The notes under the pieces are model-generated. The model was not told the origin of the DNA. It saw nothing but the letters and a program-made list of their open reading frames with translations, and did not search any database. The translations under genes and the position numbers were made by a program. Below are positions 984-7,142 of a stretch of 32,336 nucleotides of DNA, piece by piece. The stretch covers positions 1 to 32,336 of the forward strand of contig SIBH01000011.1 in NCBI GenBank assembly GCA_009695285.1, in the 5' to 3' direction. Source of the DNA: Pedosphaera sp. (GTDB lineage Bacteria > Verrucomicrobiota > Verrucomicrobiia > Limisphaerales > SIBH01). Within the stretch, counting starts at the first letter, position 1; every line of letters starts with the position of its first letter.

Positions 984-3005
984 ATGTCGCGTGAGTATGT
1001 GCTCCAATCGTTCCGTCCGCCGGTCAATCTGCAGATTGACTACGCGAACGAATTGAACGCGCAGCAGCACGCCGCCGTCACTGCGCCGCCGGGGGCCGCG
1101 CTGGTCATTGCCGGCGCGGGTTCGGGCAAGACCCGCACGCTCATCTACCGCGTCGCCTACCTGCTGGAACAGGGGATTCCGCCCGACCGTATTTTGCTGC
1201 TCACCTTCACGAACAAGGCGGCCAAGGAAATGATGCGGCGCGTCGCGGACCTCCTCGGCAGCGAACTCTCCGCGCTCTGGGGCGGCACGTTTCACGCCGT
1301 CGCCGCGCGGATTCTGCGACGCCACGCCGAGACGCTCGGCTACCGCCCGGACTTTACGATCATCGACCGCGACGACGCGAACGAACTGCTCAAGACCTGC
1401 ATCAGCGAGGCGCAGATCGACGTGAAGGCCACGCGCTTTCCCAAAACCGACGTGCTGGCGAATGTCTTCTCGATGGCGGTGAACAAATTGCAGTCCGTCT
1501 CGGAAATTCTTGCCGGGGAATACGAATTCTTCTCCACGCTCGCGCCGCAGATCGAGGACATCGCGCGCCGTTACACCGCGCGCAAAAAAGCCGCGAACGT
1601 GATGGACTTCGACGATCTGTTGGTGAACTGGCTGCGCCTGCTGCGCGAGCATGACGCGGTGCGCGAGCAATACCAGGGGCAGTTTCAGTTTATTCTTGTG
1701 GACGAATACCAGGACACGAACAAGCTCCAGGGCGATCTCATTGACCTGCTCGGTGCGCGCCACAAAAATGTGATGGTGGTGGGCGACGATTCGCAGAGCA
1801 TCTACGCGTGGCGCGGTGCGGACTTTCGGAACATTCTGGAATTCCCCAAACGCTACGCCGGCGCGCAGACCTACAAGATCGAGGTCAACTACCGCAGCAC
1901 GCCGGAAATTCTCGAAGTGGCCAACGCCGCTATTGCGCCGAACGTGAACCAGTTCGCCAAGCAGCTTGCGCCGGCGCGCAAGTCCGGCTCCAAGCCGGTG
2001 CTCGTGACCTGCGGTGATGGCAATGAGCAGGCGGCGTTCGTCGCGCAGCGCGTGCTGGAACTGCGCGAGGAGGGCGCGCCCATGGACAAGATGGCAGTGC
2101 TCTATCGCTCGCATTTCCATGCGCTGGAATTGCAGTTGGAACTCACGCGGCGCAACATTCCGTTCAGCATCACCAGCGGCATCCGCTTCTTCGAGCAGGC
2201 GCACATCAAGGACGTGGCGGCGTATCTGAAGCTCGTGAGCAATCCCACGGACGAACTCGCCTTCAAGCGGCTCGTGCAGATGCTGCCGGGGGTTGGCGGG
2301 AAGGGGGCGGAGAAGCTTTGGAGCAACTGGAACGCGGAACACGGAACGCGAAGTGCGGAACAGGGAACACTCGCGGCGGCGTTGCAAAAATGTTCCGCCG
2401 CCGTGCCCAAGAAGGCCGCGACGGCGTGGGCGGAATTTGTCATCACCATTTCACAGCTCGAAGCACCGGCGATCCGTGCCCAGCCCGCGAAGATGATCCG
2501 GCAGGTGATCGAGGCCGGCTACGAGGATTATTTGCAGGAGACGTTTCCGAACCACCGCAGCCGTCTCGATGATCTGGAGCAACTCGCCAGCTTCGCGCTG
2601 CAGTTCACCAGCACGGAGGACTTCCTCACGCAACTGTCGCTGCTCACGAACCTCGAAGCCGAGGCCGAACAAGCCGCGAGCAAGGACACCGAACAGCTCC
2701 GCCTCTCGACCATCCACCAGGCCAAGGGGCTGGAGTTTGATGTGGTCTTCATCATCATGCTCTGCGATGGCATGTTTCCCTCGGCGCGCTCCATGGAATC
2801 AACGGACGGTGAAGAGGAGGAACGGCGGCTCTTTTACGTGGCCATCACGCGGGCGCGGAACGAACTTTATCTGAGCTGGCCGCTGATCCGCGCGACCGCC
2901 GGCTACGGTGGCGATCTCATGCAGCAACGCTCGCGGTTCCTCACCGAAATCCCGGCGGAACTGATCGAGGAATGGAATCTCAGGCCGTTCAATCCTTACG
3001 GATGA
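984..3005 (+). CDS. UvrD/PcrA/Rep-family ATP-dependent DNA helicase
   Basis: Superfamily 1A 3'-5' DNA helicase, 673 residues, acting on DNA in repair or replication restart. The motifs occur in order: Walker A GAGSGKT (residues 44-50), motif Ia TFTNKAAKEM, GTFHAVAARI, Walker B VDEYQDTN (from 239), motif III GDDSQSIYAWRGA, motif IV VNYRSTPEI, motif V STIHQAKGLEFDVVFI and motif VI EERRLFYVAITRAR. It is slightly shorter than E. coli UvrD (about 720) and ends soon after motif VI. It therefore lacks the long PcrA/UvrD C-terminal tail and could be a Rep-like or lineage paralog. A low-complexity stretch between motifs IV and V (around residue 448-463) is encoded by a GGAAC-rich tandem sequence. ATG 984 is the first start after the upstream palindrome and gives full motif I; no good Shine-Dalgarno is seen. 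The stop lies 5 bases before an inverted-repeat arm. Confidence 0.93.
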   Translation: MSREYVLQSFRPPVNLQIDYANELNAQQHAAVTAPPGAALVIAGAGSGKTRTLIYRVAYLLEQGIPPDRILLLTFTNKAAKEMMRRVADLLGSELSALWGGTFHAVAARILRRHAETLGYRPDFTIIDRDDANELLKTCISEAQIDVKATRFPKTDVLANVFSMAVNKLQSVSEILAGEYEFFSTLAPQIEDIARRYTARKKAANVMDFDDLLVNWLRLLREHDAVREQYQGQFQFILVDEYQDTNKLQGDLIDLLGARHKNVMVVGDDSQSIYAWRGADFRNILEFPKRYAGAQTYKIEVNYRSTPEILEVANAAIAPNVNQFAKQLAPARKSGSKPVLVTCGDGNEQAAFVAQRVLELREEGAPMDKMAVLYRSHFHALELQLELTRRNIPFSITSGIRFFEQAHIKDVAAYLKLVSNPTDELAFKRLVQMLPGVGGKGAEKLWSNWNAEHGTRSAEQGTLAAALQKCSAAVPKKAATAWAEFVITISQLEAPAIRAQPAKMIRQVIEAGYEDYLQETFPNHRSRLDDLEQLASFALQFTSTEDFLTQLSLLTNLEAEAEQAASKDTEQLRLSTIHQAKGLEFDVVFIIMLCDGMFPSARSMESTDGEEEERRLFYVAITRARNELYLSWPLIRATAGYGGDLMQQRSRFLTEIPAELIEEWNLRPFNPYG

Positions 3006-3010
3006 AGCCG

Positions 3011-3115
3011 AATCCAAAAGGGATTCCATCTTCCAGCCCGGGGTTGCGTGGCTGCGAGCTACCCTGGGAAATTGTTCCGCAAAATATATCCGCCCTCCTC
3101 CTCGAACGAAGAGCG
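3011..3115 (+). repeat. Left arm of a ~105-bp dispersed inverted repeat
   Basis: It begins AATCCAAAAGGGATT, with GGTTGCG and CTACCCTGGGAAA inside and CCTCCTCCTCGAA near the end. The reverse complement of 3705-3809 aligns along the whole length at roughly three quarters identity by eye. The sequence resembles a dispersed element I associate with verrucomicrobial and planctomycete genomes (AATCCCAACGGGATT ... GGTTGCG ... TACCCTGGGAA), but I cannot verify copy number here. It starts 5 bases after the helicase stop codon. Confidence 0.7.
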
Positions 3116-3189
3116 GGCCGGGGTGAGGAGTCGAAAAATTCTCGTGCTTGTCGCAAAGCAGCACTCCGCATAATCTTGTCGGCATTCAC

Positions 3190-3743
3190 ATGGGCTACCT
3201 AGGAACGATTCGAGCGATGGAGGCTGCGCAACTGCGACAGCAGCGCGATTCGCAACGTCGGATGCGTGAATTGGAGCGCTAGGCGAAAGAAGAAGCAAAG
3301 CTCTCAGTGATTGAGCAGGCGCGGTTGCAAGTTGAGACTTTTCTGGGACAGCTTGAAATGCTTGTGTCTGTTCACAAGGAGCAAGGTGAAGTGTGGGCTT
3401 GGAAAGCGCTTGCGGCTGCATTGCCTCCGCCGAGTCCGCACAGAAATTCTCGTCACGAACAGAAGATGAAGCAGTGCGCGACGGTTTCCCCGTGCAGCAG
3501 AGAGAAGATTTACAGTCTCTACTTGAGCAAGCACGCCGGCAGGATGAGCAGGAGTTTCAGCAGACGACGCAGGCTTATTCTGAACAGATGATGGAATGGG
3601 AAAAACTTAAAGGTTTGGCCCGACGAATTCTTGCCGGAGAGCACAAGGCATACACTGAAGCTTTGGTTGAGCTAAATCCGTTTGCTGAAATGTCTGACCT
3701 TGGTTCTCCTCATTCGAGGAGGAGAGGGAGAATTATTTTGTGA
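3190..3743 (+). pseudogene. Broken coiled-coil hypothetical protein
   Basis: Reading from ATG 3190 gives a charged, Glu/Gln/Arg-rich helical protein starting MGYLGTIRAMEAAQLRQQR. An in-frame TAG at 3280-3282 follows codon 30, where CAG (Gln) would fit between ELER and AKEEAKL. The frame reopens and continues through VHKEQGEVWAWKALAAALP, then a single-base loss near GTTTCCCC (about 3482-3490) shifts it. The continuation in the -1 frame is clearly the same protein: QQREDLQSLLEQARRQDEQE ... EKLKGLARRILAGEHKAYTE ... NPFAEMSDLGS. The coding sense ends at about 3704, exactly where the right inverted-repeat arm begins, so the 3' end may also be truncated. I recognise a recurring verrucomicrobial hypothetical family but no function. 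A weak promoter-like CATAAT lies upstream near 3170. Confidence 0.65.
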
Positions 3744-3809
3744 GAAGTTTTCCCAGGGTAACTCGTTCCTCGCAACCGTTGGGCTGGAGGCTGCAATCCC
3801 GTTGGGATT
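3705..3809 (-). repeat. Right arm of the ~105-bp dispersed inverted repeat
   Basis: Read on the minus strand from 3809 it begins AATCCCAACGGGATT, then carries GGTTGCGAGGAACGAG and TTACCCTGGGAAAA, matching the arm at 3011-3115 in the same order and spacing. Its inner end coincides with loss of coding sense in the coiled-coil pseudogene. With its partner it brackets about 590 bases. Confidence 0.7.
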
Positions 3810-3885
3810 GCCGGGAAGCTTCGGCGTCGCTCTTGCGATGATGGCGCATGGCCGTCGCGGGTGTCGCCGTTAAATCGGTCCGCCT

Positions 3886-4203
3886 TCAGAGAATCTCAAG
3901 CTTGTGAAAATCGCCGGGGCGGCTTGCGGTCACGGCGTTTTGAATCAAGACGGCGGCGGCCAGGATGCGGCGCAGGTCGTTGGTCGAAAGTTCCAGAATC
4001 GCAATTTGGCGGCCCGCCAGATTTTGTTGGTAGCGGATGTTTTAATCCGCAGTGATGAAAAGCGCGAATTCGCTCTCAGCCAGTCGCAGCCAGTCGCCGT
4101 TTTTGAAACTGCCCCAGCCTCGACGTTGCGCCGTGGCACATTCGTGACCGACGAGGAGTTTGTGCATGGGCCAGGGAACACATTCATCAAGCAGGATGTT
4201 CAT
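3886..4203 (-). pseudogene. DUF5615-type PIN-like toxin, nonsense-interrupted
   Basis: The minus-strand frame from ATG 4203 starts MNILLDECVPWPMHKLL and continues TAQRRGWGSFKNGDWLRLAE ... FALFITAD, then TAA at 4042-4044 (codon 54), then NIRYQQNLAGRQIAILELST to a natural TGA at 3886. DUF5615 proteins are PIN-like predicted ribonuclease toxins with the acidic residues DE near the N-terminus and TADK(D/N) in the middle. Here the stop replaces the expected Lys codon (AAA to TAA), so both acidic motifs survive but are split. The ATG overlaps the stop of the upstream DUF433 gene (ATGA), showing translational coupling as a toxin-antitoxin pair. The toxin is probably inactive, unless the base is a sequencing error. 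Confidence 0.75.
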
Positions 4204-4496
4204 GCAGCCGGGGCGAGCAGCGCGGATTCAGACCGCTCCAGGAGGCGGTGAGCCATCGCCCGCGTCACCGACGGGAAACATTCGAGGAATTCTTCCAGCG
4301 TGTAGTCGCGTTCGAGGTAGTCGAAGAGCGTCTTGACCGGGACGCGCGTGCCTTTGAAGACGGGCGTGCCGCCGAGGATGTCCGGGTCAACGGTGATGAG
4401 GTCGCTGGCGTTGATGGCGGAAAGATAGGCTGATTCGGGCGGTAAAGTAAATCTCGCATTGAGCAGGAACGGCACGCCCTGATTTTTCACCACCAT
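4200..4496 (-). CDS. DUF433 antitoxin
   Basis: A 98-residue protein whose C-terminal two thirds match the DUF433 family: ITVDPDILGGTPVFKGTRVP, then VKTLFDYLERDYTLEEFLE and a helical tail. DUF433 proteins have a winged-helix-like fold and are usually paired with DUF5615 PIN-like toxins as antitoxins and likely autorepressors. The stop overlaps the toxin ATG by one base. About 30 residues precede the usual family start, where an Ile codon stands at the position of the expected Met. The native start may therefore have been altered, or the N-terminal extension may be genuine; ATG 4496 is the only ATG in frame before the domain. Confidence 0.8.
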   Translation of the reverse strand: MVVKNQGVPFLLNARFTLPPESAYLSAINASDLITVDPDILGGTPVFKGTRVPVKTLFDYLERDYTLEEFLECFPSVTRAMAHRLLERSESALLAPAA

Positions 4497-5651: not shown

Positions 5652-5716
5652 GGACACGCTAAAGCGTGTACTCCAACGCTGGGCCGTTTCCGTTGGAGTT
5701 CAACCTTTAGGTTGTC
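5652..5716. repeat. Nested palindrome, family copy A
   Basis: Left arm GACACGCTAAAGCGTG followed by TACTCCAACG, right arm CGTTGGAGTTCAACC followed by TTTAGGTTGTC. The outer arms pair, and each arm end also contains its own small palindrome (ACGCT-AA-AGCGT and AACCT-AA-AGGTT). The copies at 7073-7142 and 24510-24580 have the same design. It lies between the 3' end of the TPR gene and the start of the coiled-coil gene, both on the minus strand. Confidence 0.75.
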
Positions 5717-5761
5717 ACGGTCTGCAGGAAGGTGAATCAAGTCCATACTTAGTTGTAAATT

Positions 5762-6292: not shown

Positions 6293-7069
6293 ATGCTCAA
6301 ACTCATTTCCACCGATTTCGACGGCACGCTCCACGCCGATCATGAAGATCCGCCGGTGCCGCTGGATTTGCAGGCGCTCATTGGACGTCTCCAGGGCGAG
6401 GGCGCGAAATGGGTCATCAACACCGGCCGCGACTTGTCGAGCCTGATGGAGGGCATCGCTCGTGCGCGGTTGACGATCCGGCCGGATTACGTGGTGGTGG
6501 TGGAGCGGGAGATTTACGTGCATGAAGGCGCGCAGTTTATTGAGTTGAAGGAGTGGAACCATCATTGCGCGCGGCAACATGCCGAGCTGTTCGTGCGCGT
6601 CCGTCCGGATCTTCCCCGGCTGTTCCAGTGGATGAACGACCGCCAGCGCGCGATGATCTATGCGGACGCCTATTCGCCGCTCTGTTTCACCGCCGAGAGC
6701 AACGAGGAGGCGGACGTGCTGCAAAAATATCTCGACGAGTATTGCGCGGAAATCCCCGGACTGACGCTGGTGCGGAACGACATTTACGCGCGGTTCAGCC
6801 ATGTCGATTTCAACAAGGGCACGGCGCTGGCGGAGATCGCGCGGCGGCTCGGGGTGACGCCGCCGGAAATTTTTGCGGCGGGCGACCACTTCAACGACCT
6901 CTCGATGCTCTCCGGCGAGCACGCGCACTGTGTCGTGGCGGTGGACAACGCGATGCCGGTGGTGAAGGAAACGGTGCGGCGCGCGAATGGTTACGTGAGC
7001 CATCAGCCGTGGGGCCACGGCGTGGCGCGCGGGCTGGAGTATTATTTGGAGCGGGGCGGGGAGTCATGA
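6293..7069 (+). CDS. HAD-superfamily (Cof/IIB-type) hydrolase
   Basis: A 258-residue phosphatase of the haloacid dehalogenase superfamily. Motif I is ISTDFDGTL (nucleophile Asp plus the +2 Asp) at the N-terminus, motif II is VINTGRD, motif III is the Lys of FNKGTAL, and motif IV is AAGDHFNDLSML. The large cap between motifs II and III fits subclass IIB, as in Cof-type sugar-phosphate or phosphoglycolate-like phosphatases; the exact substrate is unknown. ATG 6293 places motif I at residues 4-12 as in the family. An in-frame GTG at 6272 would add seven unconserved residues. Copy B of the nested palindrome starts 3 bases after the stop. Confidence 0.85.
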   Translation: MLKLISTDFDGTLHADHEDPPVPLDLQALIGRLQGEGAKWVINTGRDLSSLMEGIARARLTIRPDYVVVVEREIYVHEGAQFIELKEWNHHCARQHAELFVRVRPDLPRLFQWMNDRQRAMIYADAYSPLCFTAESNEEADVLQKYLDEYCAEIPGLTLVRNDIYARFSHVDFNKGTALAEIARRLGVTPPEIFAAGDHFNDLSMLSGEHAHCVVAVDNAMPVVKETVRRANGYVSHQPWGHGVARGLEYYLERGGES

Positions 7070-7072
7070 CCG

Positions 7073-7142
7073 GGACAACCTAAAGGTTTAACTTCAACGA
7101 AAATGGCCTCGCGTTGCGCTGGAGTTCACGCTTTAACGTGTC
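7073..7142. repeat. Nested palindrome, family copy B
   Basis: Left arm GACAACCTAAAGGTT then TAACTTCAACG; right arm CGCTGGAGTTCACGC then TTTAACGTGTC. It has the same organisation as the elements at 5652 and 24510. It lies immediately downstream of the HAD gene. Confidence 0.75.

What the first reader, a model, noticed from the sequence alone, without database searches (positions are those of the whole stretch)
3011..3809. A ~590-bp unit bracketed by two ~105-bp inverted repeats
The arms at 3011-3115 and 3705-3809 align along their whole length in opposite orientation, and between them lies a complete-looking but damaged coiled-coil gene with its own leader. The inner edge of the right arm coincides with the end of coding sense. 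Either two copies of a dispersed repeat landed on each side of the gene, or the repeats and the gene form one mobilisable unit (a MITE-like cassette).
Basis: partly seen in the sequence, partly recalled or inferred. Interest (0 to 1): 0.6.

Follow-up and report, generated by a model that had tools for sequence, protein, structure and literature searches.

The report
Wrecked mobile anti-phage defence cassette
The two mirror-image repeats are the end pieces of an apparently undescribed kind of interchangeable DNA cassette that carries anti-phage genes in bacteria of the order Limisphaerales, and the copy in this window is a broken remnant of one such cassette.

Summary
The inverted repeats are real (75% over 103 nt) and share a fixed architecture: two REP/REPIN-like hairpins, a conserved linker (CGTCCCACAAAATAATTCTC), and an inner hairpin ending GGGGTGAGGAGT. 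The linker occurs 49 times in 29 of 320 Limisphaerales genomes, never in its reversed control, and in no other of 387 genomes sampled across the phylum. Sixteen arm pairs face inward; none is outward or tandem. They bracket about 0.6-6 kb of unrelated cargo, mostly anti-phage systems: restriction-modification types II, III and ISP, Mrr/SNF2, McrBC, PD-Lambda-1/SNIPE. One site carries different cargo in sister species; an empty site and a cargo-free element were also found. The window gene is the 5' half of the first gene of a two-gene SNIPE operon, with a stop, a frameshift and a deletion of about 2.4 kb ending in the right arm. Arm, promoter interval and gene recur together in three other genomes. 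I read the unit as a decayed member of a family of transposase-less, REP-ended defence cassettes (0.85). Movement in trans by RAYT enzymes, plus recombination between arms, is likely but unproven.

The parts
3007..3134 (+). left composite arm: outer hairpins 3011-3072 (AATCC..GGGATT and CCCGGGGTTG..CTACCCTGGG), linker 3073-3092, inner hairpin and GGGGTGAGGAGTCGA tail 3093-3134
   Evidence: nhmmer hits Aarm 7e-16, comp 1.2e-12, Btail 1.7e-10; three-hairpin structure with compensatory changes in 32 arms
3148..3174 (+). probable promoter (TTGTCG-15-CATAAT) in the arm-to-ATG interval, which resembles L087, L006 and L097 in length and motif
   Evidence: sequences lined up by eye; the consensus scan did not call it, so inferred
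3190..3707 (+). 5' half (codons 1-173 of about 368) of the coiled-coil gene that precedes PD-Lambda-1/SNIPE; TAG at 3280-3282, frameshift near 3486-3495
   Evidence: tblastn with the L006 full-length protein: 77% and 72% identity, nothing matching the C-terminal half; next to SNIPE in the relatives with enough sequence
3707..3708 (.). deletion junction: about 2.4 kb (3' half of gene 1, the whole SNIPE gene, inner tail of the right arm) missing compared with L087/L006
   Evidence: comparison with L087 3858-7022 and L006 4898-7888
3708..3815 (-). right composite arm: inner hairpin 3708-3735, linker 3736-3748, outer hairpins 3749-3809
   Evidence: junction 2.2e-12, Aarm 4.5e-18; exact pattern hit
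984..3005 (+). UvrD/PcrA-like helicase gene whose 3' end (stop 3003-3005) abuts the left arm: the insertion point
   Evidence: ORF list; identity of the gene by reading of the sequence

Best explanation
The unit is a decayed member of a family of defence-gene cassettes. Each cassette consists of two inverted, roughly 130-nt composite arms, facing inward, around an operon. The arm is a REPIN/RAYT-type end (two covarying hairpins), then a fixed AT-rich linker, then a third hairpin. SHOWN: the arms, their fixed architecture, the inward-only pairing, the interchangeable and mostly anti-phage cargo, the empty site, the cargo-free form, and the loss of most of the cargo in the window. INFERRED: an arm-cargo-arm cassette for the coiled-coil protein plus SNIPE landed behind a helicase gene. 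Having no transposase of its own it moved in trans, most likely by host RAYT (Y1/HUH) enzymes acting on single-stranded hairpin ends; cargo can also be swapped by homologous recombination between arms. In this genome the cassette then decayed by a nonsense mutation, a frameshift and a deletion into the right arm. I put the family-and-relic reading at 0.85, RAYT as the mover at about 0.4, and arm-arm recombination as a contributor at about 0.5.
For: Arms are real. The composite junction has fixed spacing in unrelated genomes, with 49 hits in 29/320 order genomes and 0 for the reversed control. There are 16 inward pairs, 0 outward, 0 tandem, and 6/6 same-contig pairs in the unbiased hit list face inward. 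Cargo families: PD-Lambda-1 E 1.9e-91, C5-MTase + GmrSD + HEPN, McrBC, Type ISP, Z1, Mrr, type III, MTES_1575, HerA. PADLOC hits at 1e-5: 12 of 22 tested cargo proteins against 0 of 10 outside neighbours, p 0.003. Same flanks (about 91% DNA identity) with different cargo in L094/L097. Different cargos behind gcvP in four genomes. The prfC-ABC-F gap is 9-207 bp in 7 relatives but 4674 bp with the cassette in L147. Cargo-free palindromic element in L142. Arm-to-ATG interval alike in window, L087, L006 and L097. A-type arms flank a RAYT gene in L047, and all 29 arm-bearing genomes encode Y1_Tnp, p 0.0014.
Against: No RAYT gene was found directly next to the full composite arm in about 40 RAYT loci examined, and Y1_Tnp is widespread in the order anyway, so the RAYT link is circumstantial. 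No movement was observed. Eighteen composite arms with at least 2.5 kb of inner sequence had no partner above threshold, although some have a partner weakened by decay. Several cargos (L046, L084, L094, L131) have no recognised defence family. The loci were fetched with more sequence on the inner side, which favours finding inward pairs.
Confidence: 0.85

Rival explanations
1. Arms are fixed landing pads, and cargo is exchanged only by homologous recombination between arms of incoming and resident DNA. The arms as such do not transpose.
For: Same flanks, different cargo in L094/L097 with the left arm shared; several cargos at the gcvP 3' end; no long flanking direct repeats for most cassettes.
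Against: The same arm plus cargo unit sits at different sites in different genomes (window, L087, L006, L097), and an empty site without any arm exists, so new sites do get colonised.
Confidence: 0.3
2. Two copies of an ordinary dispersed REP landed independently on each side of a decaying gene.
For: Outer arm halves are dispersed in 74 of 146 order relatives, mostly as cargo-free elements of about 215 bp.
Against: Both arms are the rarer composite type with linker and third hairpin, pairs face inward only, and the arm-to-gene interval is alike in different genomes.
Confidence: 0.05
3. The arms are bidirectional transcription terminators or insulators selected around foreign operons, not mobility ends.
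For: The inner hairpin is followed outward by an AT-rich AGAATTATTTTGTG tract; one terminator-like site was called in the left arm pointing outward.
Against: The number called equals chance (1 against 1.4 expected). Insulation alone does not explain the conserved outer hairpins and linker, the cargo-free copies and the empty sites. It may be an added role.
Confidence: 0.1
4. The cassettes are moved by an unidentified enzyme other than RAYT (a recombinase or IS transposase acting on the linker or inner hairpin).
For: Composite arms were not found abutting RAYT genes; the most conserved part of the arm is the linker and inner hairpin, not the REP-like hairpins.
Against: The outer half alone is the end of a RAYT-bearing element and of 215-bp elements (L047), and no annotated cargo contains a candidate enzyme.
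Confidence: 0.3

Closest known systems
REPIN / REP doublets with RAYT (PMC3116915, PMC2817692)
   Same: Inverted pair of hairpin-forming repeats, mostly extragenic, no transposase inside, RAYTs in the genome, compensatory changes in the stems
   Different: Arms are about 130 nt with three hairpins and a fixed linker; up to kilobases of cargo in the middle; published REPINs have spacers of tens of bases and no cargo genes
Long TIR families flanking RAYT genes (PMC3733652)
   Same: Long terminal inverted repeats, moderately abundant, some bracket a RAYT gene (L047 and, with other repeats, L247)
   Different: Here most composite pairs bracket defence operons rather than a transposase
Composite transposons around restriction-modification genes (PMC3031569 and references in it)
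   Same: Defence genes between repeats that could move as a unit
   Different: Ends are short non-coding arms, not insertion sequences with transposase genes
PD-Lambda-1 / SNIPE (PMC9519451, PMC13190303)
   Same: The lost second gene of the cassette has, in relatives, a coiled coil, DUF4041 and GIY-YIG domains
   Different: Here it is an operon with an upstream 368-aa coiled-coil protein of no recognised family or PDB fold; the passages of PMC13190303 that I read do not mention such a partner (I did not read the whole paper or its supplements)

Membership tests
REPIN (RAYT-mobilised REP doublet) | two inverted hairpin repeats | tested here: met
REPIN (RAYT-mobilised REP doublet) | conserved GTAG (or CGTC) tag at the foot of the REP stem | tested here: inconclusive
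   GTAG occurs only inside the second stem (CCCAGGGTAG) and CGTC opens the linker in most arms, not clearly in the published position (PMC3733652)
REPIN (RAYT-mobilised REP doublet) | short spacer without genes | tested here: not met
   574-5773 bp between composite arms in 15 of 16 pairs; only L142 is gene-free
REPIN (RAYT-mobilised REP doublet) | cognate RAYT flanked by the same repeat | tested here: inconclusive
   met for the outer half (L047), not found for the composite arm; Y1_Tnp present in all 29 arm-bearing genomes
MITE of a DDE transposon | target-site duplication and derivation from a transposase element | tested here: inconclusive
   no flanking direct repeat in 16 of 18 loci, one 37-nt and one 150-nt match; short duplications not tested; no DDE transposase recognised in the annotated cargos
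IS-bounded composite transposon | each end is an IS with transposase | tested here: not met
   arms are about 130 nt and non-coding
Integron gene cassette | one attC per gene in tandem orientation with an integron integrase | tested here: not met
   arms are inverted, two per unit, no tandem arrays; integrase not searched for
PD-Lambda-1/SNIPE operon (cargo) | DUF4041 + GIY-YIG nuclease gene | tested here: not met
   absent from the window copy (no SNIPE hit); present in 8 relatives with long matches and as a fragment in L013

The most novel reading that the evidence does not exclude
A transposase-less mobile element class, confined to Limisphaerales as far as sampled, whose composite REP-like ends specifically distribute and swap anti-phage systems between sites and species, powered in trans by domesticated HUH enzymes (RAYTs). 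This would make REP/REPIN populations vehicles of immunity genes and explain part of why RAYTs are kept. The uncharacterised cargos (L046, L084/L145, L094, L131 and the coiled-coil partner of SNIPE) would then be candidate new defence systems.
Probability: 0.4. Interest if true: 0.9.

Novelty: new variant of a known kind. Interest (0 to 1): 0.75.

Why it matters
RAYT transposases and REPINs have persisted in bacterial genomes without a clear benefit to the host, and how single defence operons spread between genomes without a visible mobile element is an open question. Repeat arms that bracket one defence operon at a time would connect the two. They also give a simple sequence handle (the linker CGTCCCACAAAATAATTCTCCCTCTCC) to find unknown anti-phage systems by their packaging rather than by homology.

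Tried and rejected
Rfam: no family at gathering score in the window. Pfam, PHROGs and NCBIfam for the coiled-coil protein: nothing solid, and the AlphaFold model (pLDDT 85) has no PDB fold match at E below 0.001. The idea that the cassettes come with a gene-tail or long target duplication was rejected for most of them, although gene-tail duplications do occur nearby. A G013 locus fetched as a possible empty site for L094/L097 shared only the right-hand gene, so it is uninformative. IMG/VR exact pattern, plasmids and phages: no composite arms (the single phage hit covers 29 nt). Within-pair arm similarity exceeds between-pair similarity (permutation p below 5e-5), but the comparison mixes lineages, so I give it little weight; for the window itself the partner is not the best match.

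Full report
What is in the window. The window is contig C99 of a 2.15-Mb, 57%-complete genome. The closest matching MAG is a Limisphaerales bacterium (Verrucomicrobiota). The two arms are inverted copies, 75% identical over 103 nt, far above shuffled controls. The left arm abuts the stop codon of a UvrD-like helicase gene.

The gene between the arms. The translated gene has one close relative in the GTDB scan, in a Limisphaerales MAG (L006, 76-77% identity), and weaker ones in eight other order genomes. The full-length relatives are about 333-370 aa. The window copy stops matching after codon 173, exactly where the right arm begins, and nothing in the window encodes the C-terminal half. It also has a TAG and a frameshift. 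In all eight relatives with enough sequence the gene is followed by a protein that in L087 carries DUF4041 and GIY-YIG-type domains (T5orf172/MUG113; Pfam) and scores E 1.9e-91 against PADLOC PD-Lambda-1. PD-Lambda-1 was renamed SNIPE in PMC13190303. The window therefore holds the first half of gene 1 of a two-gene SNIPE operon; about 2.4 kb are missing compared with L087.

The arms. The outer 62 nt form a dispersed repeat present in 74 of 146 related genomes. It usually occurs as an inverted pair of about 211-251 bp overall with two further hairpins in the middle, like a large REPIN. One copy brackets a RAYT gene (L047). The window arms have more: a linker and a third hairpin ending in GGGGTGAGGAGT. 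A search for this junction found 14 exact hits with near-constant spacing. The relaxed 27-mer gave 49 hits in 29 of 320 order genomes with none for the reversed control, and no hit besides the window's own genome in 388 genomes drawn across the phylum. Thirty-two aligned arms keep three stems: 92% of cells paired, 11 pairs with compensatory change, 0 of 500 shuffles as high, and slid controls far lower.

Cassettes. Mapping the arms in the fetched loci gave 16 inward pairs, no outward pair and no tandem pair. Because the loci were fetched with more sequence on the inner side, the fairest figure is the six same-contig pairs in the raw list, all inward. Three more pairs (L094, L126, L143) have one weak arm. 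Cargo: C5-methylase + GmrSD + HEPN (L082), EVE-like + McrBC (L086), coiled coil + SNIPE (L087; also L097 beside a single clear arm), type III RM-like (L090), SNF2 + Mrr (L098), Z1 + methylase (L126), type ISP RM (L130, L143), ORC-CDC6-like ATPase (L131), helicase + MTES_1575 (L147), ResIII + Mrr (L150), a kinase-TPR protein (L085), HerA + methylase (L095, one arm seen), and proteins of no known family in L046, L084, L094 and L145. Ten neighbours just outside arms gave no PADLOC hit at the same cut-off, against 12 of 22 cargo proteins.

Evidence that the unit moves or is exchanged. (a) L094 and L097, from two species of one genus, share about 91% identical DNA on both sides but carry different cargo. 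(b) The 3' end of gcvP carries cassettes with different cargo in G164, G307, G187 and G280, and other genes follow gcvP without a cassette in most relatives. (c) prfC and an ABC-F gene lie 9-207 bp apart in seven relatives and 4674 bp apart in G187, where the cassette sits; a 207-aa gene outside the arms is also inserted there. (d) L142 is a cargo-free palindromic element with the same arms. (e) The stretch from arm tail to ATG of the coiled-coil gene has similar length and motifs in the window, L087, L006 and L097, which lie in different genomes. More distant homologs of the operon (L062-L065) have no full arms.

Mechanism. No annotated cargo contains a transposase or recombinase. The outer arm half is a RAYT-associated repeat in L047, Y1_Tnp genes occur in all 29 arm-bearing genomes (258 of 320 overall; p 0.0014), and most cassettes lack long flanking duplications, which fits single-strand HUH transposition but also recombination. 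RAYT genes examined in arm-bearing genomes did not carry the composite arm, and the one read in full has other repeats. I therefore regard mobility of the unit as well supported by comparison, and the enzyme as open, with RAYT first.

Known or new. REPINs, RAYT-flanking TIRs and IS-bounded restriction-modification genes are known (PMC3116915, PMC3733652, PMC3031569). Literature searches found no description of REP-type arms carrying defence operons, but subscription papers and preprints are not in that library. The window's own copy is a wreck: no functional defence is expected from it.

Noticed in passing
L247 1064-1156 and 1840-1935 (G187:C9:22500-25500): A RAYT gene with its own inverted REP-like arms sits between two direct copies of about 95 bp of the host gene's 3' end: an insertion with a gene-tail duplication.
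   Followed up: partly
L087 3397-3534, L084 643-762, L195 1544-1720, L192 2164-2328: The 3' end of gcvP is duplicated in several species, in L087 around a small toxin-antitoxin-like insert, suggesting gcvP is an insertion hot spot for more than one kind of element.
   Followed up: partly
window 3945-4496: A DUF433-like gene next to a DUF5615-like PIN gene that carries an in-frame stop: a probably decayed toxin-antitoxin pair right beside the decayed cassette (by reading, not by a family search).
   Followed up: no
window 5674-5722 and 7068-7116: A second inverted pair (49 nt, 86%) with a different motif (TTCAACCTTTAGGTTG) brackets a TPR-like gene and a hydrolase-like gene in the same window.
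   Followed up: no
L046 2269-5825, L084 934-2924, L094 10467-13974, L131 7798-10255: Cargo operons between composite arms with no or only weak family matches: candidate unknown defence systems by their packaging.
   Followed up: partly
L091 1465-1532 and L086 9829-9899: L091 (family f35) holds next to its arm a stretch resembling the McrBC-like cargo end of L086 (family f42): perhaps a second case of the same cargo with arms in different families (by eye).
   Followed up: no
G000:C105:7362-7719 (L003): The window's own genome has another inverted pair of the outer arm type around about 245 bp of repeat-rich DNA.
   Followed up: partly
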